Positions 23,035 through 36,752 of a stretch of DNA of 64,000 nucleotides are shown piece after piece. The notes beneath the pieces are model-generated. The model saw only the letters and a list, made by a program, of their open reading frames with translations, did not search any database and was not told the origin of the DNA. The stretch's first letter is position 1, and every line of letters begins with the position of its first letter. The position numbers and the translations under genes were made by a program. The stretch is from an uncultured Bacillota bacterium. Its GTDB lineage: Bacteria > Bacillota_I > Bacilli_A > RFN20 > CAG-826. Location: contig OX437086.1 of NCBI GenBank assembly GCA_949299565.1, positions 476,919 through 540,918 on the forward strand. Reading direction: 5' to 3'.

Positions 23035-23137
23035 AAAATAAAAAGTTCACCAGAGGTGAACTCTTATTCGACCCCCATACGGGGTTAACTCCAAGTCCTT
23101 GAAGACTTGAACTAAGCTGCCTTTCTCCAACAAAGGC
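23035..23137 (-). ncRNA. tracrRNA of the type II CRISPR-Cas system
   Basis: Minus-strand RNA of about 103 nt. In order: a 5' hairpin GCCTTT/AAAGGC (23119-23136), an anti-repeat (23087-23118), a nexus-like hairpin ACCCC/GGGGT (23071-23085), and a terminator AGTTCACC/GGTGAACT (23044-23062) with a T-rich tail. The anti-repeat matches the CRISPR repeat in two blocks, 11 of 13 nt at the repeat 5' side and 12 of 12 nt (TTGAACTAAGCT) beyond a short bulge. The repeat 5' half pairs next to the nexus, as in known tracrRNA:crRNA duplexes. It is encoded on the opposite strand to both cas9 and the array. Confidence 0.88.
23044..23062 (-). terminator. Terminator of tracrRNA
   Basis: Perfect 8-bp stem AGTTCACC / GGTGAACT with a 3-nt loop, followed on the minus strand by TTTTATTTTC. 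Confidence 0.85.
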
Positions 23138-23143
23138 AAGTTC

Positions 23144-23177: not shown

Positions 23178-25310
23178 ATGAAAACGTTAGGCCTTGATTT
23201 AGGGATCGGTTCAGTCGGGTGGTGCCTTTATGAAACAGATGAACAGCATATTCCTTTAAGCATCATCGATTTAGGTTCTTATGTTTTTGATCAAATAGAA
23301 GATAGAAAAACTGGAGAAACCGAAAATATCAAGCGAAGAGAAAAACGTTTGATGCGAAGGCAAAGAAGAAGACATGTCAAAAGACTTGCCTATGTTAGAA
23401 CTCTATTCGCTTCTTACTTTCATAAAGATTTCCTTAAAGACGTCATACCTAACAATCATTTAAATCCCTTTGAAATAAAGAAGAAGGGGCTTGTAGAAAA
23501 GCTCTCTCCCGAAGAATTGATGATTGCGCTTTATCATTACGCTAAATATCGTGGCTTTAAATCGAACCGCAAAAGCGAAAAATCTGACGACGAAGGCGGC
23601 AAGATGACAAAAGGAATCAAGGCGATAAACGATAGACTTGAAGAAAGAAGAAAAGATGGTGAAGTGATTACGATCACGCCCTATCTTTTAGAAATGCAAA
23701 ATAGTCGAAAGGATTCGTGGGACAATAGAATTCATAATTCTAGCGACAAATATAATTTCACCGTTTCGCGTGAACTATACGAAGAAGAAATTGAATTGCT
23801 TCTCAATAAACAAATTGAACATGGTGTGATTAACCAAAAATTTAAAGATGATTATTTTCAAATTTATAGAAAACAACGAAGTTATTCGGAGGGACCGGCT
23901 TCCGGGCCTTATCAAATTGATCGCGAGAAGATTGTTGGAAAATGTCAATTTGAAAAAGATGAATTAAGAGCACCTAAAGACAGTTTATCGGCCACTAAAT
24001 TCATAGCGTTGACGAAACTTGTAAATTTTGGATACAAGAAGCACGCGGAAGATAAAGACTATTCTAGATTGACAGGAGAACAAATTACAAAAGCCCTTGA
24101 TGCGATGCTTAAAGTTCAAAAAGTCGACTATAAAAAACTTTTTAAAACAGTCGGAATTAGTAATGACGATGTTTATCGAGTGAAAGATCTCAAATTATCA
24201 AGAAAAGAGTACATAGAGGCGCTTCAGGCATTTAAGAAGGAAAAATCAATTCCTGAAAATAGTTATTTGCCAGAACAATATACAGAGGAATTTGCTAAAT
24301 ATGTTAAGGGAAAAACTTATAGCAAAGTATTCTTCAATAATTCTCCATTCTTTTATGAACTTCAAAAAGCATTGAAAGGCGTTACTGATCTACCAGAGAG
24401 CGATAAAGAACTGATCAAAAAAGATGAATTTTTCGATGATGTTGCGAATATCTTTTTGTTTTCAAAGGATGACGAAAAAATAAAGAACGAATGTCTAAAA
24501 GGAGAGGATAGTAAATATAAAGCTCTCAAAGTGCCATATAGCGAAAAACTAATCGACGTCATCTTGAACCTTAATGCTGATGTCAAAAATACAGTCAACT
24601 TATCGTTAAAGGTTCTCCGAAAAATCATTCCTTTTATGAAAAGCGGCCTTGTATATAGCGAGGCATCAGAGAAAGCCGGCTATAACCATAGCGAAAGCAA
24701 TAAGTGGGGTAGTGAGACGTTGAGTTATATTCCGCCAATTGATGAAGCACTAGAAAAAGCACACATATATTTGAAAAACCCGGTCGTTAAACACTCATTA
24801 GTGCAAATGAGGAAGGTAATTAATGCTGTAATTCAAACATACGGCATCGTCGATGACTATGTCGTTGAATTAAGCCGCGAATTACGTCATTCGTTCGATG
24901 AGAGGAAAAGCATTCAAAACTCTCAACTCGAAAATCAGAGCAAAAATATTTCATATAAGAATGAAATACTTGAAAAATTCCCAAATATAAAATCCTTTAG
25001 AGGCATCAGCCGTTCAAACGACTATTTATTGCGTTATAAACTTTTTAAAGAGCAAAACGGCAAAAGTCCTTATACAAATAACCCAATCAGCGAACGAGAC
25101 ATCTTTGGTAATTCCTATCAAATCGATCACATTATTCCTTTTTCCAGAAGTTTCGATGATTCTTACGACAATAAAGTTTTAGTTGAGACGAAGTGCAATC
25201 AAGATAAAAAGAATTGCACGCCATATGAGTGGGATCGTTCAGTTTATGAAAATATTCAGAAATTTTTGAACACTACCAACGTTTCTCTAAAAAGAAAGAA
25301 AACCTTTTAA
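23178..25310 (+). CDS. cas9: Cas9 N-terminal part (RuvC-I, bridge helix, REC, RuvC-II, HNH)
   Basis: A 710-residue open frame holding the first two RuvC motifs, the bridge helix, the recognition lobe and the whole HNH domain. It ends in an out-of-frame tail (KRKKTF) after the A5 run. On its own it lacks RuvC-III and the PAM-interacting domain and should not cut double-stranded DNA. Confidence 0.85.
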   Translation: MKTLGLDLGIGSVGWCLYETDEQHIPLSIIDLGSYVFDQIEDRKTGETENIKRREKRLMRRQRRRHVKRLAYVRTLFASYFHKDFLKDVIPNNHLNPFEIKKKGLVEKLSPEELMIALYHYAKYRGFKSNRKSEKSDDEGGKMTKGIKAINDRLEERRKDGEVITITPYLLEMQNSRKDSWDNRIHNSSDKYNFTVSRELYEEEIELLLNKQIEHGVINQKFKDDYFQIYRKQRSYSEGPASGPYQIDREKIVGKCQFEKDELRAPKDSLSATKFIALTKLVNFGYKKHAEDKDYSRLTGEQITKALDAMLKVQKVDYKKLFKTVGISNDDVYRVKDLKLSRKEYIEALQAFKKEKSIPENSYLPEQYTEEFAKYVKGKTYSKVFFNNSPFFYELQKALKGVTDLPESDKELIKKDEFFDDVANIFLFSKDDEKIKNECLKGEDSKYKALKVPYSEKLIDVILNLNADVKNTVNLSLKVLRKIIPFMKSGLVYSEASEKAGYNHSESNKWGSETLSYIPPIDEALEKAHIYLKNPVVKHSLVQMRKVINAVIQTYGIVDDYVVELSRELRHSFDERKSIQNSQLENQSKNISYKNEILEKFPNIKSFRGISRSNDYLLRYKLFKEQNGKSPYTNNPISERDIFGNSYQIDHIIPFSRSFDDSYDNKVLVETKCNQDKKNCTPYEWDRSVYENIQKFLNTTNVSLKRKKTF

Positions 25311-25411
25311 TCAAGGATTTTAGTGATCAAGAGCAAGACTTCCTTAATAAAGACTTAAACGATAGTAGTCATATTGCTACGCTTGCTAAGGATTTAATCA
25401 CTTATTATTTA

Positions 25412-27055
25412 TTGCCTAAAGATCATAAATGTCGTTCGACTACGGGTGGCGTGACAAGCAAACTCAGAGAAATTTGGGGTTTATCTGGAAAGACGCACAC
25501 GTACCACCCTGGCGTCAGTTATGAAAACAAATGTTATCAAGCTCGTTTTTTGTCTGACTATCATTACGAAAGTTTTGAAGTTGACGAAAAAGATAAGACA
25601 ATAACATTCTTCTTCAATCTAATAAATATGGATGATCAGAATCCATCCAAAGTCAAATTTGAAATCAAAAAAGAAAAAAAGAAGACTAATCGCGACCTTA
25701 GTCCAGCCCAAAACAAACACAATGAATATATCGATTTTTTCTCCGACAATAAAACTAAGAATAATCGAGAATATTTCAAAGAACAATTTTACAACGCTTT
25801 GGGGAAGGATATAAACGAACTGCAAGAACAGATTTCTGGTGAGCGGATTGCTGCTAACGGAGAAAGCAGCAATTGTTCGGAGATTGGGCGCTATATTTTA
25901 GGTAAAGTGCGAGAACAAATTCAGGAAGACATAAATAAAAAAGACAGAAGCAATGACTTACATCATGCGCTTGATGCGGCAGTGATTGGGGCTACAAACC
26001 CGACACTCATTAAAAGAGTCAATGAATACAATAAACTGAAAGAAGTGGGTGATGAATTAAATAATCAGAAAATTCTTTCTGATCCTAAAACAGGTGAGAT
26101 TTCTTCTACGACTTTCCCTTATTCTGATTTTCAAAAAGATGTTCTTTTACGTGTTTATGAGCGCGATCAAGAAAAGCTTCTCAGAATTCTAAATTCCTTG
26201 GAACCTTATAAAAATAATCCGAGAACCGATGAGAATACGCACGTTTTAATACCGGCGAGAAGTCCGTTAAAGAATATCAAAGGACCTATATCGGATGAGA
26301 CGATCTATGGAAGGCCTCGAGCCTTTAGCGAAAAGAAACTAACAAGAGTTGTCTCTGTTAAAAAAATAACGGATAAACAAATAGAAAACATATACGATAA
26401 AGAAGGCGGGAATAGTGCTGTCTATAAAGCGATAAAAGAGTGGTTTGCACAAGATGCAGGCAGCCGTCCCGAGTTCCCGAAGCTGCCAAAGAAAGGCACT
26501 TTTATCAAGAGTGTTCGGATAGTTGATATATTAACTCCTGAAAAAGCGGTTGATTTATCAAATGGCCGGTACGCTAAAAATAGCGATGTCATTAGAGTTG
26601 ATGTGTATAGAAAAAAAGATTCTGATAATGAGAACTTATATTTTGTTCCGATTTATTATTATCAAATAAGCCGTGAAAGAATAATCGCTGAGCAGAAAAA
26701 GAAGGGCGTCAAAAATTTAACTAGCGAACCTAAATATAATTTGATGTGGACATCAGGAGAGAACGGAAGGGTTTTCCTTTCTTTAAGCGAACTAAAAGAG
26801 AATTACGAACGCATTGCTAAGTTGCCTCTACGATCTTTTGTTGAACTTGAGATGAAAGACGGAAGGAAATTTTGCTGTTATTCAGGTGGGTGTACTAACG
26901 GAATGCTTGAAATCTACTCTCTGATTGGTGACAACTTGGATGCAAGAAATGAATGGCGTGCTCCTCTTGATTCATATGGCAGGATTCGCCCATCGTTATC
27001 AACAATTAAAGATATTAAACTTCGCAATATATCAGTCCTAGGAAAAATCAGTTAA
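25412..27055 (+). CDS. cas9: Cas9 C-terminal part (RuvC-III and PAM-interacting domain)
   Basis: A 547-residue frame counted from a TTG at 25412, but the same frame is open back through the A5 run, where it reads KKENLLIKDFSDQEQ in continuity with the HNH part. It has no Shine-Dalgarno of its own. It contains GGVTSKLREIWGL, the RuvC-III HHALDAAVIGA motif (Asp188 here) and the C-terminal domain. The stop overlaps the cas1 start (TAATG). Confidence 0.85.
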   Translation: MPKDHKCRSTTGGVTSKLREIWGLSGKTHTYHPGVSYENKCYQARFLSDYHYESFEVDEKDKTITFFFNLINMDDQNPSKVKFEIKKEKKKTNRDLSPAQNKHNEYIDFFSDNKTKNNREYFKEQFYNALGKDINELQEQISGERIAANGESSNCSEIGRYILGKVREQIQEDINKKDRSNDLHHALDAAVIGATNPTLIKRVNEYNKLKEVGDELNNQKILSDPKTGEISSTTFPYSDFQKDVLLRVYERDQEKLLRILNSLEPYKNNPRTDENTHVLIPARSPLKNIKGPISDETIYGRPRAFSEKKLTRVVSVKKITDKQIENIYDKEGGNSAVYKAIKEWFAQDAGSRPEFPKLPKKGTFIKSVRIVDILTPEKAVDLSNGRYAKNSDVIRVDVYRKKDSDNENLYFVPIYYYQISRERIIAEQKKKGVKNLTSEPKYNLMWTSGENGRVFLSLSELKENYERIAKLPLRSFVELEMKDGRKFCCYSGGCTNGMLEIYSLIGDNLDARNEWRAPLDSYGRIRPSLSTIKDIKLRNISVLGKIS

Positions 27056-27972
27056 TGGGCTTTCGGCAAATTTATATAAAGGAGGCAAAGAAGCTTTCAA
27101 CTTCCGATAATTGCCTTGATATCATCAAGGGAGAAGGGAAAACTGATGTCTCTTTTCCCTTAGAAGATTTAGATTTAATTTTTGTCGAAGATCCTAATGT
27201 AGTAGTAACGTCGCGTCTATTATCGCAATTATCAAAATATGGAATTTCGATGATTTTTTGTGGTCCGAATTATTTGCCAGCGACAATCACCGTACCGATG
27301 AATGGTCATTATTTGCAGTCTAGTCTCCTCGATTTGCAGTTGAAATTATTGCCGTCTAAGAAAAACAAATTTTGGGAGACGATAATCAAAGCCAAAATAA
27401 ATAACCAAATGAAAGTGTTAGAAAACACTAATAATGATGTTGAGACGTTTTTGCGTCTTAAGGAATATTGTTCGCAGGTTAAATTCGGCGATGAAAAGAA
27501 CATGGAAGGACAAGCGGCTAAAGAATATTTCAAGGCTCTTTTTGGCTCTGATTTCATTCGTTTCAGCGACACTGCCATCAGTTCGGCTTTAAATTATGGT
27601 TATTCAATTTTAACGGGCGCTATTATTCGCACGGTTGCCTTTGCTGGTCTCAATGATAATTTAGGAATTTGGCATCATAGTTCGCAAAACGCGAATAATT
27701 TAAGTTGCGATCTTGTAGAACCTTTTAGACCGATAGTGGACTATTGCGTTTACAACAATTTAAATAGCTTAACGTTGCCCTTATCAATGGAAATTAGAAA
27801 AAAATTAGTCAATCTTTTAAATTATTATGTCCTTGTTGATGGCAAGAAATATCAAGTATCTTATGCGATTTCTTTATTGGTAAATGACTATGTAAATTAT
27901 TTGAAGGATGGTGACATTGAACACGTCAAAATGCCGTCTTTCTTTGTGAATGATGCGACAAATGGACTATGA
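27055..27972 (+). CDS. cas1: CRISPR-associated endonuclease Cas1
   Basis: A 305-residue type II Cas1 integrase subunit that with Cas2 inserts new spacers. The metal-binding residues are in place: E151 (MEGQAAKEYF), H207/H208 (GIWHHSSQN) and D219 with E222 (CDLVEPFRP). The helical ALNYGYSILTG segment is typical of the family. The ATG at 27055 overlaps the cas9 stop by 1 nt, so translation is coupled. Full length, with no damage seen, which contrasts with the broken cas9. Confidence 0.96.
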   Translation: MGFRQIYIKEAKKLSTSDNCLDIIKGEGKTDVSFPLEDLDLIFVEDPNVVVTSRLLSQLSKYGISMIFCGPNYLPATITVPMNGHYLQSSLLDLQLKLLPSKKNKFWETIIKAKINNQMKVLENTNNDVETFLRLKEYCSQVKFGDEKNMEGQAAKEYFKALFGSDFIRFSDTAISSALNYGYSILTGAIIRTVAFAGLNDNLGIWHHSSQNANNLSCDLVEPFRPIVDYCVYNNLNSLTLPLSMEIRKKLVNLLNYYVLVDGKKYQVSYAISLLVNDYVNYLKDGDIEHVKMPSFFVNDATNGL

Positions 27973-28300
27973 AGGGAAAAGTTATAAAAATATGCGTTTG
28001 ATGGTGCTTTTTGATATGCCTGTTGAAACAGACGCCCAAAGACGCGAATACACTCACTTTCGAAAATTCATCATGGACGATGGTTTTATGATGCTGCAGT
28101 TCTCCGTCTACACTAGGTATTGCAATAATGATAGCGATGCGGAAAAACATATGAAACGTGTCTCATCTTATAAGCCTAAATATGGTAACGTCCGCATATT
28201 GAAAGTCACTGAAAACCAATTTTCTTCAATGGTAGTTTTATCAGGTGAAAAAAGCGCACAAGAAATTGTAGAAACAGTGGAGCAATTAACAATTATTTAA
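27962..28300 (+). CDS. cas2: CRISPR-associated protein Cas2
   Basis: About 112 residues. Core RLMVLFDMPVET with the family Asp at the end of beta-1, then FRKFIMDDGFMMLQFSVYTRYC and a VRILKVTENQF strand. It forms the dimer that bridges two Cas1 dimers during spacer integration. The frame opens at 27950; ATG 27962, overlapping cas1 by 11 nt, is a reasonable start, and ATG 27992 is also possible. The stop codon shares TTAA with the stop of the convergent ATPase gene. Confidence 0.93.
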   Translation: MDYEGKSYKNMRLMVLFDMPVETDAQRREYTHFRKFIMDDGFMMLQFSVYTRYCNNDSDAEKHMKRVSSYKPKYGNVRILKVTENQFSSMVVLSGEKSAQEIVETVEQLTII

Positions 28301-29292
28301 AGGGGAATTTCAAGCATTTCGAAAATCTTTTTATAGAGATTTTCCTCTTCCTTTGTCCGTGGTGCGATTACTACGCAATTCTTGCTTCTTTCATGAGAAA
28401 TCCGTGGATTTTTGGCCGTTAAAATTCTCAGAATGTTTGTCAGTTCGTCATTGCGGATATATTCAGCAAAAATCTTAGCGATTCCAGATTTTTCATTGTA
28501 GCCTTGCGAAATCATATATTCCTCAAAAGTTTGATATTCATTAAATTCATTGATTGAACTTGCGACCAGTTTTTCTAATGACGGGAGTGAGAAAATTTTG
28601 TTGTTTCGAATTGCAAATAAGCGCGTTTCTTCATCAATTAAAAACTGGGGTATGCTCTTTTTCGAGGTCAAGATAAAGTAGGCGTCGGTAGTGCTTATCT
28701 TATTTAGAAAGTTGATGGTGCTTTCTTCATCGAGATTATTGTTGAAATCGTCTATGAGCACGACCGTCTTGTTTTTTGTTGTTTTCGCTAGAGCGTTCAC
28801 TAACGAAAAGAGCTCTTCACGTTCTTCAGAACTAGAATCCATTTCAAGCGAAATGCTCATGTTATCCAGTAAGAGATCTAACGGGCGATCATAATCGCTT
28901 ATATTGGTTTTAGTTCCGGGGAGAATTGTCCGAACGATTCCTTCTATTTCTTGTTGAGCAACGTTGATTCCTTTTTGAATCATTTGACATGAACTATGAA
29001 AATCAGGAGAAAATTCGCTTTCGTTAATCATTCTTCTGATCAAACTTTTCGACGATAATTTTAAATGGTTCGATATTCCTTCATCGCTTGGAAGATAAAA
29101 AACATTAAAGTCACCACTGATTGTTTGGGTGCCATTAACAAGATGATGGCGATCTTTGCCAGTGAATATTGAATTTAGATTTGAGAGTGTTTCAGTTTTG
29201 CCTGATTTTCCATATCCGAAAAGCAAATTTATCTTCGAAAAAGTTAAAATTTTTTTCGTTTCTTTATTAAAAACCGTAAGTGGATTAAGCAT
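28297..29292 (-). CDS. Csn2-like P-loop ATPase next to the CRISPR array
   Basis: A 331-residue protein with an ABC/AAA-type P-loop: Walker A GYGKSGKT (26-33) and Walker B VVLIDD (177-182), followed by a LDEES stretch. It lies where csn2 sits in type II-A loci, between cas2 and the array, but on the opposite strand. From the Walker B segment on, its order (hydrophobic strand, LDEE, helix, strand ending YFILTSKKSIPQFLID) resembles the C-terminal half of Csn2. Known Csn2 proteins are ABC-ATPase-derived DNA-end-binding rings whose nucleotide site is degenerate; here it looks intact. Best reading: large Csn2-type adaptation protein with a working ATPase; a generic ATPase is the alternative. AAGGA precedes the ATG at 29292. 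Confidence 0.7.
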   Translation of the reverse strand: MLNPLTVFNKETKKILTFSKINLLFGYGKSGKTETLSNLNSIFTGKDRHHLVNGTQTISGDFNVFYLPSDEGISNHLKLSSKSLIRRMINESEFSPDFHSSCQMIQKGINVAQQEIEGIVRTILPGTKTNISDYDRPLDLLLDNMSISLEMDSSSEEREELFSLVNALAKTTKNKTVVLIDDFNNNLDEESTINFLNKISTTDAYFILTSKKSIPQFLIDEETRLFAIRNNKIFSLPSLEKLVASSINEFNEYQTFEEYMISQGYNEKSGIAKIFAEYIRNDELTNILRILTAKNPRISHERSKNCVVIAPRTKEEENLYKKIFEMLEIPL

Positions 29293-29333
29293 ATTTTTCC
29301 TTTGCCTTCTTTAAATTGTATCAATTAATTGTG

Positions 29334-29361
29334 TGTACAGGCTAACTTTTTAGTGTAAAAT
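29334..29361 (+). promoter_or_regulatory. CRISPR leader promoter
   Basis: -35-like TGTACA (29334-29339), 16-nt spacer, -10 TAAAAT (29356-29361), with a predicted start near 29368, just before the first repeat. This plus-strand orientation agrees with the crRNA strand required by the minus-strand tracrRNA. Confidence 0.5.
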
Positions 29362-29371
29362 ACGGATACAG

Positions 29372-29473
29372 GACTCCAACTCCTGAAAATTTGAACTAAG
29401 CTAAAACTAACGCTGACGGGCTGATTACCAGGTGCGCGACTCCAACTCCTGAAAATTTGAACTAAGCTAAAAC
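29372..29473 (+). CRISPR. Minimal CRISPR array: two identical 36-nt repeats, one 30-nt spacer
   Basis: Repeats at 29372-29407 and 29438-29473 are identical, start GACTCCAACTCC and end GCTAAAAC; the period is 66 nt. The spacer (29408-29437) has about 60% G+C, well above the surrounding DNA. Both repeats are followed by TAACG, so the conserved unit could be read as 41 nt with a 25-nt spacer. Transcription is inferred to be on the plus strand, because the tracrRNA with its own terminator is complementary to this strand. Confidence 0.92.
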
Positions 29474-29489
29474 TAACGAGAAACAAAAA

Positions 29490-29702
29490 ATGGAAGAAAC
29501 TCAAACAACTGCAGTACCTAAAAAATCAAAAGTAAAATCCTTCTTTTACGCAATATGGAAGTTTATTAAGTTTGTAGTGGTTGGCTTTTTTAAGATCATT
29601 TTTAAGATAATTTATTGGATTTTCGCTATTATCTTTTTCTCTTATCGCTTGGGAGAAGAAACGCATTATACTTTTAATCTCAATGATAAGGATTATTTGT
29701 GA
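29490..29702 (+). CDS. Small membrane protein directly downstream of the array
   Basis: A 70-residue ORF starting 16 nt after the last repeat. It has a basic N-terminus (KKSKVKS), one long or two short hydrophobic helices (about 18-52, rich in Ile, Phe and Trp) and a polar C-terminus. No Shine-Dalgarno precedes the ATG, so translation is uncertain, but composition and length favour a real protein. It could only be transcribed from the leader promoter through the array, or from an unseen promoter. I recognise no family. A 27-codon GTG frame overlaps its stop (29699-29782). Confidence 0.45.
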   Translation: MEETQTTAVPKKSKVKSFFYAIWKFIKFVVVGFFKIIFKIIYWIFAIIFFSYRLGEETHYTFNLNDKDYL

Positions 29703-29883: not shown

Positions 29884-30441
29884 ATGAAACTGGCAAAATG
29901 GTACTTAAATCTCGATACAAATAGAAAAACTCTCTTTTGGATTGCAGCAGTCGGAATTGCCGGTTTCCTTCTTCAAACGCCGCTTTTCTTTTTTCGAAGC
30001 GCTGACGGATATCCCGGCGGTGCTTATGCTTTAGGTTGGCTTTTAGGAAGCGTTATTTCTGTTATTTCCTTTTATACGATGATTCTTATGAGCAACGCCT
30101 TGCTCTCCTCTTCGACAAAAGGCTATACGATGGGGCTTTCGTTAGGGAGTGCCTTCCTCCGCATTTTGTTATACGGAGCAGCTTTAGTTGTCTCAGCCAT
30201 TTGCACTTTCCGAGCGGAGTGGTTTAGCGGTTTCAACGCCTTTAATTTTTATACGACTTTCGGGGCAATGTTGCCGTTTCCTTTCGTTACTCTCTTCTTC
30301 TATTTCCATGAAGGACGGAAAGCAACAGTTGTTTCCTCTCTTCCAAAAACTGAGAACACAAAAGTTGAAGAAGCAAGTCAAATAAAGGAAGAGAAAGGCG
30401 AAAGCAGTGAAATCATTCTTTCTGAGGATGAGAAACAATGA
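29884..30441 (+). CDS. Putative ATP synthase subunit I-like membrane protein
   Basis: A 185-residue protein with four predicted transmembrane helices (about 18-36, 48-72, 92-112, 120-140) and a charged, Glu/Lys-rich C-terminal tail. Its position, directly before atpB and overlapping it by 4 nt, is that of atpI, which aids c-ring assembly or ion homeostasis. Sequence similarity to AtpI is not obvious by eye and the length is greater than usual (about 130), so the call rests mainly on context. Confidence 0.6.
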   Translation: MKLAKWYLNLDTNRKTLFWIAAVGIAGFLLQTPLFFFRSADGYPGGAYALGWLLGSVISVISFYTMILMSNALLSSSTKGYTMGLSLGSAFLRILLYGAALVVSAICTFRAEWFSGFNAFNFYTTFGAMLPFPFVTLFFYFHEGRKATVVSSLPKTENTKVEEASQIKEEKGESSEIILSEDEKQ

Positions 30442-31295
30442 CCTTTGAAGAGCGAATTTCACATATGCTCGATTGGGAGATGGACGCCTCTCTTTATTCA
30501 TCGCTTCTCGTGATGCTCATCGTCCTAATTCTTGGAATCATTGTAGGCTTTTTAGCTAGGAGAGGTCTTAAGAAAAAGACGTATCTTGAACGCCCGAAAG
30601 GTCTTCTTTATTTAGCGGAACTTTATACCGGTTACATCGAAAAGTTCGTTGAAGACAATATGGGAGAAGAAAATAAGGCTTGGAGCGGCTATATTTTCAC
30701 GCTTTTCATTTATTTGATTGTCGCTTTCAATATTTCGCTTCTCGGTCTCCCTTCTGTAATCGATTGGTTAGCGGCTCCTCTTTCTTTATCGGTCATCATG
30801 TTTGTTTTAATCCAAGCGACAGCAATCAGACATCAACATTTCGGTTATTTTCATCGTTATATCGAACCGATCTTTGTCTTTTTGCCAATCAATTTGGTGA
30901 CGATGTGGTCGCCAATCATTTCCACGACAATGCGTCTTGTCGGCAATTGTTTGGCGGGTACCGTCATCATCGGTCTTGTCCAGTGGGCCTTATCGGAGGC
31001 TTCCGGCGCAATCTTCAATTTGATGGGTGGTCTCACCGATTTAGCGCATGCGAATTATGTGCCGTTTTGGGACGTTGACCAGGGGACGGTTTGGACACAA
31101 ATTTTCCTTGCGCCGATTCCGATGGGAATTTTAAATCTTTATTTCTCGCTGTTCTCCTCTGTTGTTCAGACGCTTGTCTTCGCCTCTCTTAACGCCCTTT
31201 GGATCGCGCAAGAGATTCCTGAAAAAGATGTCAGCGGCGTCATCGCGGAACGTCCGCCTCAAACGCCTCCGAAATTAGTTAGCGTTCACCAATAA
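30438..31295 (+). CDS. atpB: ATP synthase F0 subunit a
   Basis: A 285-residue integral membrane subunit that forms the ion half-channels of F0. The essential stator arginine lies in STTMRLVGNCLAG, followed by the VIIGLVQWAL helix, and the C-terminal helix pair ends near LVFASLNALWIAQEI. It overlaps the upstream gene by 4 nt. The partner c subunit suggests Na+ as coupling ion. Confidence 0.93.
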   Translation: MTFEERISHMLDWEMDASLYSSLLVMLIVLILGIIVGFLARRGLKKKTYLERPKGLLYLAELYTGYIEKFVEDNMGEENKAWSGYIFTLFIYLIVAFNISLLGLPSVIDWLAAPLSLSVIMFVLIQATAIRHQHFGYFHRYIEPIFVFLPINLVTMWSPIISTTMRLVGNCLAGTVIIGLVQWALSEASGAIFNLMGGLTDLAHANYVPFWDVDQGTVWTQIFLAPIPMGILNLYFSLFSSVVQTLVFASLNALWIAQEIPEKDVSGVIAERPPQTPPKLVSVHQ

Positions 31296-31327
31296 GTAAC
31301 AAATAGAAAAAAGAAAGGAGTTTACTT

Positions 31328-31564
31328 ATGGAACTTGGTCTCATTGCGATTGCTGCCGCCATCTGTGTGGCCTTCGGCTGCTTATCGGCAATCGGAGAAG
31401 GGATGATTTGCTGCCACGCGATCGACGGCATGGTGCGGAATCCGGAAATGGAAAAGAAGTTGAGAAGCACGATGATCATTGCCGTCGCTCTCGATGAATC
31501 GACAGCCATCTATTGCTTGATCATGGCAATTCTCATTGTCTTCGTCCTTGGAGGTCGGGTCTAA
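31328..31564 (+). CDS. atpE: ATP synthase F0 subunit c with two-carboxylate Na+ motif
   Basis: A 78-residue hairpin of two helices forming the rotor ring. The outer helix has the ion-binding Glu57 followed by S58, T59 and Y62 (DESTAIY), the pattern of Na+-binding c subunits (E65, S66, T67, Y70 in Ilyobacter numbering). At the position of Gln32 there is Glu24 (IGEGM). Two carboxylates, E32 and E65, are known from the Na+-driven rotor of Fusobacterium. The usual GxGxGxG of the inner helix is degenerate, and two Cys (C28-C29) follow. A Shine-Dalgarno (AAAGGAG) precedes the ATG. Confidence 0.92.
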   Translation: MELGLIAIAAAICVAFGCLSAIGEGMICCHAIDGMVRNPEMEKKLRSTMIIAVALDESTAIYCLIMAILIVFVLGGRV

Positions 31565-31577
31565 TACCCACTTTTAC

Positions 31578-32120
31578 ATGCCAATCATCTTCATCTTCGA
31601 TGATCCTTTTACTTCGGAAGATTTCTTGAACAAACTCTTTCCGAATATTTGGAGTTTGCTCATCAATCTTCTAGCTTTAATCGTCCTTTTCATCGCCCTG
31701 TATTTTTTGGCTTATAAACCCGTCAGTCGTTATCTCAAAGCGCGGAAAGATCATATCGAAGGGGATTTAAAGGAAGCGCGTGTCGCGAAGGAAAAGGCTC
31801 AGAAAGTGGCTTCTGAAAGCGAGAACATCATCGCGAAGGCTAAAGATCAGGCCGATGAGATTGTGAAGGAAGCAAAAAGCAACGCGCAAGTCGTTTCTGA
31901 ACGCCTCCAAAAAGAAGCTGAAGAAGAAATCCGTCGGAAAAAAGAGATGGCGGAAGAGGACATCTTAAAGAAGAAAGAGAAGGCCGCGCGCGAGATGAAA
32001 AAAGAGATGGTAGAAGTCGCTCTTTCGACTTCCGAAAAGATTTTAGGGCGCAGCATCAACGAGGAAGATGAGAAACGCTTCCTTCAAGAATTCAAGGTCG
32101 ATGAAGATGAAAAGAAGTGA
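31578..32120 (+). CDS. atpF: ATP synthase F0 subunit b
   Basis: About 180 residues: one N-terminal transmembrane helix (about 18-43), then a long charged coiled coil (about 50-150) that makes the peripheral stalk. The frame is open from a TTG at 31536, overlapping atpE, but ATG 31578 gives the usual short N-terminus before the helix. The nearest GGAGGT (31550-31555) is 22 nt away, too far for a normal Shine-Dalgarno, so translation may be coupled to atpE. Confidence 0.9.
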   Translation: MPIIFIFDDPFTSEDFLNKLFPNIWSLLINLLALIVLFIALYFLAYKPVSRYLKARKDHIEGDLKEARVAKEKAQKVASESENIIAKAKDQADEIVKEAKSNAQVVSERLQKEAEEEIRRKKEMAEEDILKKKEKAAREMKKEMVEVALSTSEKILGRSINEEDEKRFLQEFKVDEDEKK

Positions 32121-32637
32121 GATTACTTCCTACGCCCAAGCTTTTCTTCATTCATATCCGAAACACGAAGAAGAGATGGTCTCTCTTTTTGAAAAGTTCG
32201 TCGTTTTAGTAAAGAAAGAAGAAAAGATTTTTGCTTTTTTAGCTTCTCCGGCAATCGATAAAGAAGAAAAGAAACATTTACTCTCTTTGATTTCTGAGAA
32301 AGAAGGGATAACGCCGATAAACGCTTATCTTTTCCTTTTAAATAAACATGATGCCTTCCCGTATTTAGAAGAGATAAGAGAAGCGCTTCATCTCGCCTTA
32401 AATGATTTTAAGGGCGTGGAAGAAGGGATTGTTTATTCGCATTTGCCGTTAGAAGAGCAAGAAATTAAAAGCATCGAGAAAAAAATCGAAAAAGAATTAA
32501 AAGCAGAAGTGCATTTAGAAAACAAAATCGATAAAACGTTACTTGGCGGTTTTCGCGTTTTTGTGGCTGGCAAGCTCTTTGATGCTTCAATCAACGGGCG
32601 TCTGGCGCGTCTTAAGGAACATTTGTTAAAAGAATAG
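32107..32637 (+). CDS. atpH: ATP synthase F1 subunit delta
   Basis: About 176 residues. N-terminal helical domain (SYAQAF start typical of delta/OSCP), then a C-terminal KTLLGGFRVFVAGKLFDASINGRLARLK motif region of which LGGFRV and LFDASINGRLARL are the family signature. It links the b-subunit stalk to the alpha3beta3 head. The frame is open from 32068; ATG 32107 has AAGG at 9 nt, and ATG 32101 is also possible. It overlaps atpF. Confidence 0.9.
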   Translation: MKRSEITSYAQAFLHSYPKHEEEMVSLFEKFVVLVKKEEKIFAFLASPAIDKEEKKHLLSLISEKEGITPINAYLFLLNKHDAFPYLEEIREALHLALNDFKGVEEGIVYSHLPLEEQEIKSIEKKIEKELKAEVHLENKIDKTLLGGFRVFVAGKLFDASINGRLARLKEHLLKE

Positions 32638-32652
32638 ACAGGAGGAGAGTCC

Positions 32653-34167
32653 ATGGCTGACTACAGTGTGAAGAATTTAGCGTCCCTTCTCACGAAAGAG
32701 ATTGAGTCTTTTTCCAGTTTCCATGAGGAGAGTTCGGTAGGGACTGTCATTTCGGTCGGAGATGGCATCGCAAGAGTCTATGGACTTAAACAAGCGATGC
32801 TCGGCGAGCTTCTTTTATTTCCGAACGGTGCGACGGGCATGGCTTTAAATCTCGATCAGGATGATATCGGGGTCGTCTTATTGGAAAACGGAGACGCGAT
32901 TAAAGAAGGGGATGAAGTAAAAGCCACTGGGCGTGTTGTCGAAGTGCCAGTCGGCGACGCTTTATTGGGACGCGTTGTGAATGCACTGGGGAAGCCGATT
33001 GATGGATTAGGCGAAATAAAAAGCGAAAAACGGCGTCCGATCGAACGAGTTGCGCCCGGCGTCATGAAACGAGAAAGCGTCAATCGTCCGCTCTTCACGG
33101 GTTTAAAAGCTATCGATTCGATGATTCCGATCGGACGCGGGCAACGTGAGTTGATTATCGGCGATCGTCAAACGGGAAAAACAGCGATCGCAATCGACGC
33201 AATCCTCTCGCAGAAAAAGAGCGGCGTTAAATGCGTTTATGTGGCGATTGGACAAAAAGACTCTTCTGTTGCCTCTTTAGTTCATAAGTTAAAGGAGGCT
33301 GATTCCTTTTCTTATGTCACGGTCGTCAATGCCGGGGCCAGCGAAGCTTCTCCGGAACTTTATGTCGCTCCTTTTGCCGGGATGGCGATTGCTGAAGAAT
33401 GGATGGAAAAAGGAGAGGATGTTTTGATCATCTTCGATGATTTATCAAAGCACGCGGTCGCATATCGCGCCCTGTCATTGCTCCTTCGCCGTTCGCCGGG
33501 ACGTGAAGCATATCCGGGTGATATTTTCTATCTCCATTCTCGTCTTTTGGAACGGGCATGCAAGCTTTCCAAAGAATATGGCGGTGGTTCGATCACCGCG
33601 CTTCCGATTGTTGAAACGCAAGCGGGCGACATCTCTTCTTATATTCCAACGAACATCATTTCAATCACCGATGGTCAGATCTTTTTAGTGACTGATTATT
33701 TCAATGAAGGTCAACGTCCCGCTATCGATTCAGGCCTTTCGGTTTCGCGGGTCGGAAGCGCCGCTCAAACTCCGGCTATGAAAAAGGTTTCGGCGTCTTT
33801 AAAAATTTCGCTTGCCAATTACCGTGAAAATCTTTCTTTTGCGCAGTTTGGAAGTGACCTTGATAAGGACACTAAACGGATTTTGACAAGAGGTGCCCGC
33901 GCAATGGAAGTCTTAAAGCAAACTAACTTCCAACCATATAAAGAAAGCCAGGAAGTAGTCGAACTTTTGCTTCTCCAAGAAGGGAAACTCGATAATTTGA
34001 AAGTCGAAAGTCTTCATGAAATCCTTTCTTCCTTCTTTGCCTTTCTTCTAGACCAGCATCATCAGATTATTGAACATCTTGAGCAAGAACATACTTTGCC
34101 ATCAGAAATTAGTGAGGAGATCACTAATTCGTTTGATGACTTTTTAGCAAGGAGCGAATACGCGTGA
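32653..34167 (+). CDS. atpA: ATP synthase F1 subunit alpha
   Basis: A 504-residue non-catalytic nucleotide-binding subunit. Walker [11 protein letters not shown], Walker [12 protein letters not shown], and the alpha signature with [17 protein letters not shown] are all present. Length is normal. GGAGGAG lies 6-7 nt before the ATG. The TGA stop overlaps the GTG start of atpG. Confidence 0.97.
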
Positions 34168-35009
34168 GTCTCTCTTTAGAAAAAACAAAGCATCGCATTG
34201 CCTCCATTCAAAGTATCGGAAAGACGACGAAAGCGATGGGCTTATTGGCTGCGGCCAAACTCAATCGTTATCGTTCGACGTTTGAAAAAGAAAAAACATA
34301 CATGAACGAGATGCAAGAATTAGCCGCGCTTCTTCTTTCTTATGCCAAAAAGAGTCAACACTTTTTAAAGAAAGGCGAAGGCGAAACGCTTTACATCGTC
34401 ATTGGCTCTGATCTCGGGCTTTGCGGCGCTTATAACGAAGTTATTTTTAAAGAAGCACTCAAACAATTAGAGGAAGAAAAGGGTTTACTTCTTCCGCTTG
34501 GCAAAAAGGCCGAGAATTATTTTAAGAGCCGTTATTCGGAACTTCTCATCAATGAGGCTCCGACTGTCAAAATAGAAAGTAGAGCCTATGAGCTGAGAGA
34601 GCTCGCCAATTATTTATTGGACGGCTTCCTCTCTAAGAAATTCAAAAGCATTAAAATCATTCACGCCCATTACATAAACGCGATGAAATATTTGCCGGTA
34701 ACTTTTGAGCTTTTGCCTTTAAGTCATAGACGTCAAAAATGGGCTCATGAAGAATATTGTCCGCCTCTTTTCGATGGCGATGTCGATACTTTGTTCGCTG
34801 AATTGCTGCCTTCCTATCTTTCTTCGATCTTACATGATTTATTTCTCGAATCGTTAGTGACAGAGAACAGCGCGCGTCATTTAGCGATGGAAAATGCGAA
34901 TGAAAATGTCGATAACTTGTTAGAAGCGTTGAAAATCGAATATAACAAAGCGCGGCAGAACGCGATTACTCAAGAAATAAGCGAAGTGACGGGCGGAAGT
35001 GTCAATTAA
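34164..35009 (+). CDS. atpG: ATP synthase F1 subunit gamma
   Basis: A 281-residue central-stalk subunit. N-terminal helix with [14 protein letters not shown] and C-terminal helix with [13 protein letters not shown] and [18 protein letters not shown], the two halves of the coiled coil that turns inside the head. [10 protein letters not shown]-type Rossmann motif reads [10 protein letters not shown]. It starts with GTG at 34164, overlapping atpA by 4 nt. Confidence 0.95.
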
Positions 35010-35022
35010 GGAGGTTTAATAG

Positions 35023-36431
<1,409 letters not shown>

Positions 36432-36432
<1 letters not shown>

Positions 36433-36752
36433 TGGCCACCAGCGCAAGCTTTCCTTACATGATCATTACGCCGGAGGGGACTTTCCTTTCGGGGGAGGCT
36501 GAAGAATTATTGGTTCCATCGATAAATGGTCCGCTTGGGATTTTAAAAGGGCATACGCCTTATGTTTCGCCGCTTAAAGAGAACGGGAAACTCAAAATCG
36601 TCGAACACGGACAAGAATCATTTTATTTTCTCGAAGGCGGAATTCTCGAAGTGAAAGAAGATATTGTCTTGATTTTAGCTTTGCGCGTTCGAAAAGATCT
36701 TTCAGACGTTGATTCAAAGACGATGAATGTTAAGATAAGCGAGGGAGCATGA
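36432..36752 (+). CDS. atpC: ATP synthase F1 subunit epsilon, lacking the C-terminal helices
   Basis: A 106-residue epsilon subunit, while most have about 130-140. The N-terminal beta-sandwich (about 8-88) is complete (MIITPEG start, GILKGHTPYVSPL, FLEGGILEV). The C-terminal helical hairpin, which in other bacteria inhibits ATP hydrolysis, is reduced to some 20 residues. It begins on the last base of atpD and ends 1 nt before the next gene, so the shortening is not due to a visible frameshift. Confidence 0.9.

What the first reader, a model, noticed from the sequence alone, without database searches (positions are those of the whole stretch)
28297..29292. Csn2-position protein with intact Walker A and B: an ATP-hydrolysing adaptation factor?
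In type II-A loci csn2 lies between cas2 and the array, and Csn2 proteins descend from ABC ATPases but have lost nucleotide hydrolysis. Here a 331-residue protein sits at this place, inverted relative to cas2, with GYGKSGKT and VVLIDD and a C-terminal segment resembling Csn2. It may be an ancestral-type or re-activated Csn2 that uses ATP during spacer capture. Its inversion gives it its own promoter, divergent from the array.
Basis: partly seen in the sequence, partly recalled or inferred. Interest (0 to 1): 0.65.

Follow-up and report, generated by a model that had tools for sequence, protein, structure and literature searches.

The report
Csn2 that kept its ATP site
Next to a Cas9 gene and a CRISPR array lies a backwards-facing gene for a known kind of helper protein (large Csn2) that, unlike the studied Csn2 proteins, still carries a complete ATP-binding site, which suggests that some bacteria use ATP when they store new viral memories.

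Summary
The 331-aa ORF at 28297-29292 (minus strand) lies tail-to-tail with cas2 and faces away from a two-repeat array. It carries GYGKSGKT (Walker A) and VVLIDD (Walker B). It is a large Csn2: a full-length match to a PADLOC type II-A Csn2 profile (E 3e-19), and its predicted fold best matches the solved large Csn2 Stu0660 (3zth; Z 16.4 over 290 residues, next best 14.0).

It is not a lone re-activated oddity. Among 14 relatives the only invariant columns are Walker A Gly-Lys, a signature-type Ser, and Walker B Ile-Asp. The same site is lost in the St-type large Csn2, in one further large Csn2, and its Walker A is absent from 19 of 19 short Csn2. The simplest reading is retention of an ancestral site. 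The inverted gene is shared by eight loci that form one clade in both Csn2 and Cas1 trees, with the leader between csn2 and the array.

ATP binding is well supported; hydrolysis is unproven, because the catalytic-Glu position is Asp here and varies among relatives, although the host's RecF also has Asp there. My best guess is an ATP-gated DNA clamp that holds and then releases prespacers. In this genome cas9 is frameshifted and there is only one spacer.

The parts
28297..29292 (-). large Csn2, 331 aa, with intact Walker A and B
   Evidence: PADLOC PDLC01597 Csn2 10-329/338 E=3e-19; predicted fold best matches 3zth, Z 16.4
29194..29217 (-). Walker A GYGKSGKT (residues 26-33); G31 and K32 invariant in 14 relatives
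28834..28836 (-). Ser153, signature-type Ser about 28 residues before Walker B Asp, invariant; assignment as ABC signature Ser is inferred
28747..28764 (-). Walker B VVLIDD (residues 177-182); I180 and D181 invariant, D182 at the catalytic-Glu position variable
29293..29371 (.). 79-bp leader shared by csn2 (minus) and array (plus): array promoter TGTACA-16-TAAAAT at 29334-29361; possible csn2 extended -10 TGATACAAT at 29323-29315 (by eye)
29372..29407 (+). CRISPR repeat 1 GACTCCAACTCCTGAAAATTTGAACTAAGCTAAAAC
29408..29437 (+). the only spacer, 30 nt
   Evidence: no significant match found
29438..29473 (+). CRISPR repeat 2
27950..28300 (+). cas2
   Evidence: TIGR01573 8.5e-24
27055..27972 (+). 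cas1, type II
   Evidence: TIGR03639 9.2e-79
23178..27055 (+). cas9, broken by a frameshift near 25290-25310 between HNH and RuvC-III
   Evidence: TIGR01865 in two pieces; frames; relatives have intact 1245-1302-residue frames
23041..23138 (-). predicted tracrRNA: anti-repeat 23088-23118, nexus hairpin, terminator 23065-23041; promoter TTGTCT-18-TATAAT at 23173-23144

Best explanation
The gene encodes a large Csn2, the adaptation accessory protein of a type II-A CRISPR-Cas9 system of the small-Cas9/large-Csn2 kind. Unlike the short Csn2 and the St-type large Csn2, it belongs to a subfamily that has kept the ATP site of its ABC/RecF-type ancestor. Shown: membership, fold, conserved ATP-site residues, conserved inverted gene order. 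Inferred: it binds ATP, and two head domains close over ATP around double-stranded DNA ends, as in RecF, Rad50 and SMC. It holds a prespacer next to Cas1-Cas2-Cas9, and ATP turnover or exchange opens the clamp so that the DNA passes to Cas1-Cas2 for insertion at the leader beside its own gene. The inverted gene has its own promoter in the leader, so csn2 can be expressed apart from cas9-cas1-cas2.
For: Full-length Csn2 profile match, found for 14 of 14 relatives. 3zth is the top fold match for two models, of the window protein and of relative L054: Z 16.4 vs 14.0 for the next and 17.0 vs 14.2; Foldseek also lists short Csn2 structures 3qhq, 3toc, 3v7f, 6qxf and 3s5u. Invariant columns are only G31, K32, S153, I180, D181. 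The site is lost in St-type L049 and Stu0660, in G448, and Walker A is absent in 19 of 19 short Csn2. Inverted csn2 abutting cas2 in eight loci, one side of a branch in the Csn2 tree (88/98) and Cas1 tree (92/93). Relatives' arrays are long and varied: 76 of 76 unique spacers in L030, 38 of 38 in L036, 31 of 31 in L029. The published S. pyogenes Csn2 wraps the prespacer and must slide off before integration (PMC8034620), a step that an ATP cycle could drive.
Against: The catalytic-Glu position is Asp here and D8, N2, E2, G1, Q1 over 14 relatives; no switch His is seen. So hydrolysis may be slow or absent. No biochemical data. In this genome cas9 is frameshifted and the array has one spacer, so this copy may be inactive. 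The mechanism beyond ATP binding is inference.
Confidence: 0.6

Rival explanations
1. It is a large Csn2 that binds ATP as a structural cofactor only: the nucleotide stabilises the ring on DNA, with no productive hydrolysis.
For: Walker A, signature-type Ser and Walker B Asp are invariant, but the catalytic-Glu position varies (D, N, E, G, Q) and the switch His is missing.
Against: The host's own RecF also has Asp at that position (VLDDVYGELD); RecF proteins are known from general knowledge to be slow DNA-stimulated ATPases.
Confidence: 0.27
2. It is a generic anti-phage or RecF-type ATPase that happens to lie beside the CRISPR locus.
For: RecF, GajA, AriA profiles match weakly; GajA and OLD are the next fold matches at Z 14.0 and 13.2.
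Against: Csn2 profile is far stronger and full length; 3zth tops both models; same gene in the same place in eight loci with concordant Csn2 and Cas1 clades; the protein is too short for an OLD/GajA nuclease domain; the host RecF control matches no Csn2 model among its 25 best.
Confidence: 0.04
3. A standard Csn2 re-gained an ATP site from an inactivated ancestor.
For: The solved large Csn2 (Stu0660) lacks the site, and so do the short Csn2 sampled here.
Against: 13 of 14 family members have strict GxxxxGK[ST] and the other SxxxxGKT, across Bacillota, mycoplasma-like and Fusobacteriaceae genomes. Retention needs fewer changes than repeated regain.
Confidence: 0.04
4. In this genome the locus is decaying: cas9 is broken and csn2 is a remnant that no longer works. 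(Compatible with the other readings, which concern the family.)
For: cas9 frameshift; only one spacer; relatives have intact cas9 and long arrays.
Against: cas1, cas2 and csn2 are open and conserved; the frameshift lies in an A-rich run and could be an assembly error.
Confidence: 0.3

Closest known systems
PADLOC PDLC01597 Csn2 (CAS-II-A, acquisition-associated; its best match in the class sample is a TGA-reading, mycoplasma-like genome)
   Same: Full-length profile match, locus, size, P-loop
   Different: Only 3e-19 against 3.6e-121 for that genome: a distant branch, with csn2 inverted
Stu0660 / St-type large Csn2 (PDB 3zth, PF16813)
   Same: Whole predicted fold, length near 350 residues, beside cas1-cas2 of a II-A system
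   Different: Stu0660 has lost Walker A (GQNNELKY) and the Walker B Asp (IVLKNI); PF16813 does not match the window protein; the St-type gene is co-directional in L049
Short Csn2 (PF09711; PDB 3qhq, 3toc, 3v7f, 3s5u, 6qxf)
   Same: Head-domain fold; adaptation role by locus
   Different: 215-232 residues, no C-terminal domain, no Walker A in 19 of 19; separate Cas1 clade (100/100)
RecF / SMC / Rad50 head ATPases
   Same: Walker A, signature-type Ser, Walker B with a RecF-like IDDF..LDEE stretch
   Different: Not a RecF by the curated cut-off (19 vs 172 bits); no coiled coil; belongs to a cas locus

Membership tests
Large Csn2 of type II-A (large-Csn2/small-Cas9 kind) | Full-length match to a Csn2 profile | tested here: met
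   PDLC01597 10-329/338, E 3e-19; 14 of 14 relatives
Large Csn2 of type II-A (large-Csn2/small-Cas9 kind) | Fold of Stu0660 including the C-terminal part | tested here: met
   3zth Z 16.4, rmsd 4.8, 290 aligned, model 5-331; relative L054 Z 17.0
Large Csn2 of type II-A (large-Csn2/small-Cas9 kind) | Csn2 length about 317 +/- 38 aa in a locus with cas9, cas1, cas2 and array | tested here: met
   331 aa; cas genes; size class from PMC4607530. Cas9 of relatives, 1245-1302 residues, is somewhat above that paper's 1130 +/- 60
Large Csn2 of type II-A (large-Csn2/small-Cas9 kind) | Ring oligomer that binds linear dsDNA ends; need in spacer acquisition | not testable with these tools
   no biochemistry available
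St-type large Csn2 (PF16813) | Match to PF16813 | tested here: not met
   no match up to E 10; own genome no match
Short Csn2 (PF09711) | Match to the model and about 220 aa | tested here: not met
   331 aa
Csn2 as described for the solved members | Walker motifs degenerate | tested here: not met
   intact GxxxxGKT and LIDD; invariant in family
ABC/RecF-type ATPase | Walker A, Walker B Asp | tested here: met
ABC/RecF-type ATPase | Signature Ser | tested here: inconclusive
   S153 invariant and at the expected distance, but the LSGGQ context is absent
ABC/RecF-type ATPase | Catalytic carboxylate after Walker B and switch His | tested here: inconclusive
   Asp182 as in the host RecF, but N, G or Q in relatives; no His
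ABC/RecF-type ATPase | ATP hydrolysis | not testable with these tools
   needs an assay
RecF | TIGR00611 above cut-off | tested here: not met
   19 vs 172 bits; the genome's RecF is elsewhere
GajA/OLD anti-phage ATPase | Full-length profile match with the C-terminal nuclease domain | tested here: not met
   GajA model's best stretch covers only residues 62-119, E 3.4e-5; the protein is 331 aa against a 659-position model

The most novel reading that the evidence does not exclude
A subfamily of Csn2 uses ATP binding and turnover as a switch or timer for prespacer capture and release, making adaptation in these Cas9 systems energy-dependent; csn2 is expressed from the leader, so that spacer insertion and csn2 expression are physically linked.
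Probability: 0.35. Interest if true: 0.78.

Novelty: new variant of a known kind. Interest (0 to 1): 0.5.

Why it matters
Stu0660 and the short Csn2 sampled here lack a working ATP site, and how Csn2 lets go of the prespacer is unknown (PMC8034620). A Csn2 branch whose only invariant residues form an ATP site gives a direct genetic and biochemical test of whether nucleotide controls this step, and shows what the ancestral Csn2 probably looked like.

Tried and rejected
My first reading of array polarity (minus strand, from the GTTTTAG-like reverse complement) was wrong: tracrRNA orientation, terminator, degenerate distal repeats and the -10 box all put it on the plus strand. A first scan of genome contigs with the single protein found nothing; the alignment found seven loci. 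No relatives in viral contigs, plasmids or phages. The spacer has no significant match. Seven weak PDLC01597 hits (E 1e-5 to 1e-7; L042-L048) have no cas homologues nearby by tblastn and were treated as generic ATPases. hhalign of the family against the single host RecF sequence gave no useful alignment. PDLC02128 and PF16813 surveys of the class found few members. Short Csn2 structures appear in Foldseek's list but are not among the 50 rows shown by VIA-align. Literature: the papers most likely to discuss Walker motifs in Csn2 subfamilies (Chylinski 2014, Arslan 2013) are not held and Lee 2012 was seen only as a citation, so prior notice of the intact site cannot be excluded.

Full report
WHAT IS THERE. 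The ORF at 28297-29292 (minus) encodes 331 aa with GYGKSGKT at residues 26-33 and VVLIDD at 177-182. It follows cas9 (23178-27055, in two frames), cas1 and cas2 on the plus strand and overlaps the end of cas2 by 4 bp, tail to tail. A 79-bp gap separates its start codon from a two-repeat, one-spacer array (29372-29473). The window lies in a complete 1.06-Mb genome in one contig with no other copy of the repeat apart from the tracrRNA anti-repeat.

ARRAY POLARITY. The repeat resembles an anti-repeat at 23088-23118 upstream of cas9. On the minus strand this stretch is followed by a nexus hairpin (CCCCGTATGGGG) and an 11-pair terminator with a T run at 23065-23041, and preceded by TTGTCT-18-TATAAT. 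Six loci share this layout. The array is therefore on the plus strand. In relatives the degenerate repeat lies at the far end, and a -10-like box lies just before the first repeat next to csn2.

WHAT THE PROTEIN IS. Pfam and NCBIfam give no match above any cut-off, but PADLOC's Csn2 model PDLC01597 (CAS-II-A) matches residues 10-329 of 331 at 3e-19; the next non-Csn2 model, AriA, is at 7.6e-6. All 14 relatives match the same model. The AlphaFold2 model (mean pLDDT 82, pTM 0.77) has Stu0660 of S. thermophilus, a large Csn2, as best match: Foldseek E 8.4e-8, with short Csn2 structures also listed, and VIA-align Z 16.4, rmsd 4.8, 290 residues aligned over 5-331, ahead of GajA at 14.0 and OLD at 13.2. 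A model of the Fusobacteriaceae relative L054 gave the same answer: 3zth Z 17.0 against 14.2 for the next. The host's RecF, as a control, has no Csn2 model among its 25 best matches.

THE ATP SITE. In the alignment of 14 relatives (mean column identity 35%) the invariant columns are exactly G31, K32, S153, I180 and D181. 13 have strict GxxxxGK[ST]; one has SxxxxGKT. S153 lies at the start of a helix about 28 residues before the Walker B Asp, where ABC and RecF proteins have their signature Ser; that assignment is inferred. The St-type large Csn2 (L049; Stu0660) has GCNRKAQV and GQNNELKY in place of Walker A and lacks the Walker B Asp. The large Csn2 of G448 has GENNTYKK and IIIENF, so both motifs went together. 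Retention from the ancestor is the simplest reading; a rooted superfamily tree was not made.

BINDING VERSUS HYDROLYSIS. The position after the Walker B Asp, normally Glu in ABC ATPases, is Asp in the window and D8, N2, E2, G1, Q1 over the family, and no switch His is apparent. The genome's own RecF also has Asp there (VLDDVYGELD), so Asp does not exclude hydrolysis. The ATP site is under clear constraint, which supports binding; hydrolysis is possible but not shown.

CONSERVED INVERSION. Eight loci (window, L029, L030, L031, L036, L037, L054, L056) have csn2 inverted, directly next to cas2. They form one side of a branch in the Csn2 tree (88/98; one change, 0 of 500 shuffles as low) and in the Cas1 tree (92/93). 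The Cas1 tree also splits large-Csn2 from short-Csn2 systems (100/100). Outside the clade csn2 lies co-directional with cas2 (L039) or beyond the array (L038). In loci with enough sequence the leader is 68-97 bp. Arrays in the clade hold many different spacers (76 of 76 unique in L030, 38 of 38 in L036, 31 of 31 in L029), as expected of working adaptation.

MECHANISM. Published work on S. pyogenes shows Csn2 wrapping the prespacer within the Cas1-Cas2-Csn2 complex, from which it must slide off before integration (PMC8034620). From the RecF/SMC-like site I infer that two Csn2 heads close over ATP on a DNA end, and that nucleotide turnover or exchange lets the clamp open. Expression from its own promoter in the leader would separate Csn2 dose from the cas operon. 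These steps are inference. The main rival is ATP as a structural cofactor without hydrolysis.

STATE OF THIS COPY. cas9 changes frame near 25290-25310, in an A-rich run between HNH and RuvC-III, while six relatives have intact frames of 1245-1302 residues. With a single spacer, this copy may be inactive, or the frameshift may be an assembly error; this cannot be decided here.

KNOWN OR NEW. Type II-A systems with small Cas9 and large Csn2 are described (PMC4607530), as are csn2 genes in mollicutes (PMC6882279) and gene inversions in mollicute CRISPR loci (PMC8725752). I found no paper in the library stating that a Csn2 subfamily keeps an intact, invariant ATP site, but key papers are not held. 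I rate it a new variant of a known kind.

Noticed in passing
window 25285-25412: cas9 frameshift in an A-rich run (CTAAAAAGAAAGAAAACC) between HNH and RuvC-III; all six relatives examined have an intact frame.
   Followed up: partly
window 29408-29412 and 29474-29478: Both repeats are followed by the same five bases TAACG, so the duplicated unit looks like 41 nt rather than 36; chance or an odd duplication.
   Followed up: no
window 29490-29702: A 70-aa ORF with a hydrophobic stretch starts 16 nt after the last repeat and may be on the array transcript; no good family match.
   Followed up: no
L034, L035 (genome G448): A large Csn2 split over two contig ends has lost both Walker A and Walker B, as in the St-type: apparently an independent loss of the ATP site.
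   Followed up: partly
L071 (genome G253, same genus as the window): A genome of the same genus carries a short Csn2 with a Cas1 of the other clade, so both kinds of II-A system occur within one genus.
   Followed up: no
window 29884-36752: The CRISPR locus abuts an ATP synthase operon; in Mycoplasma salivarium the CRISPR locus also lies next to an ATP synthase gene (PMC8725752).
   Followed up: no
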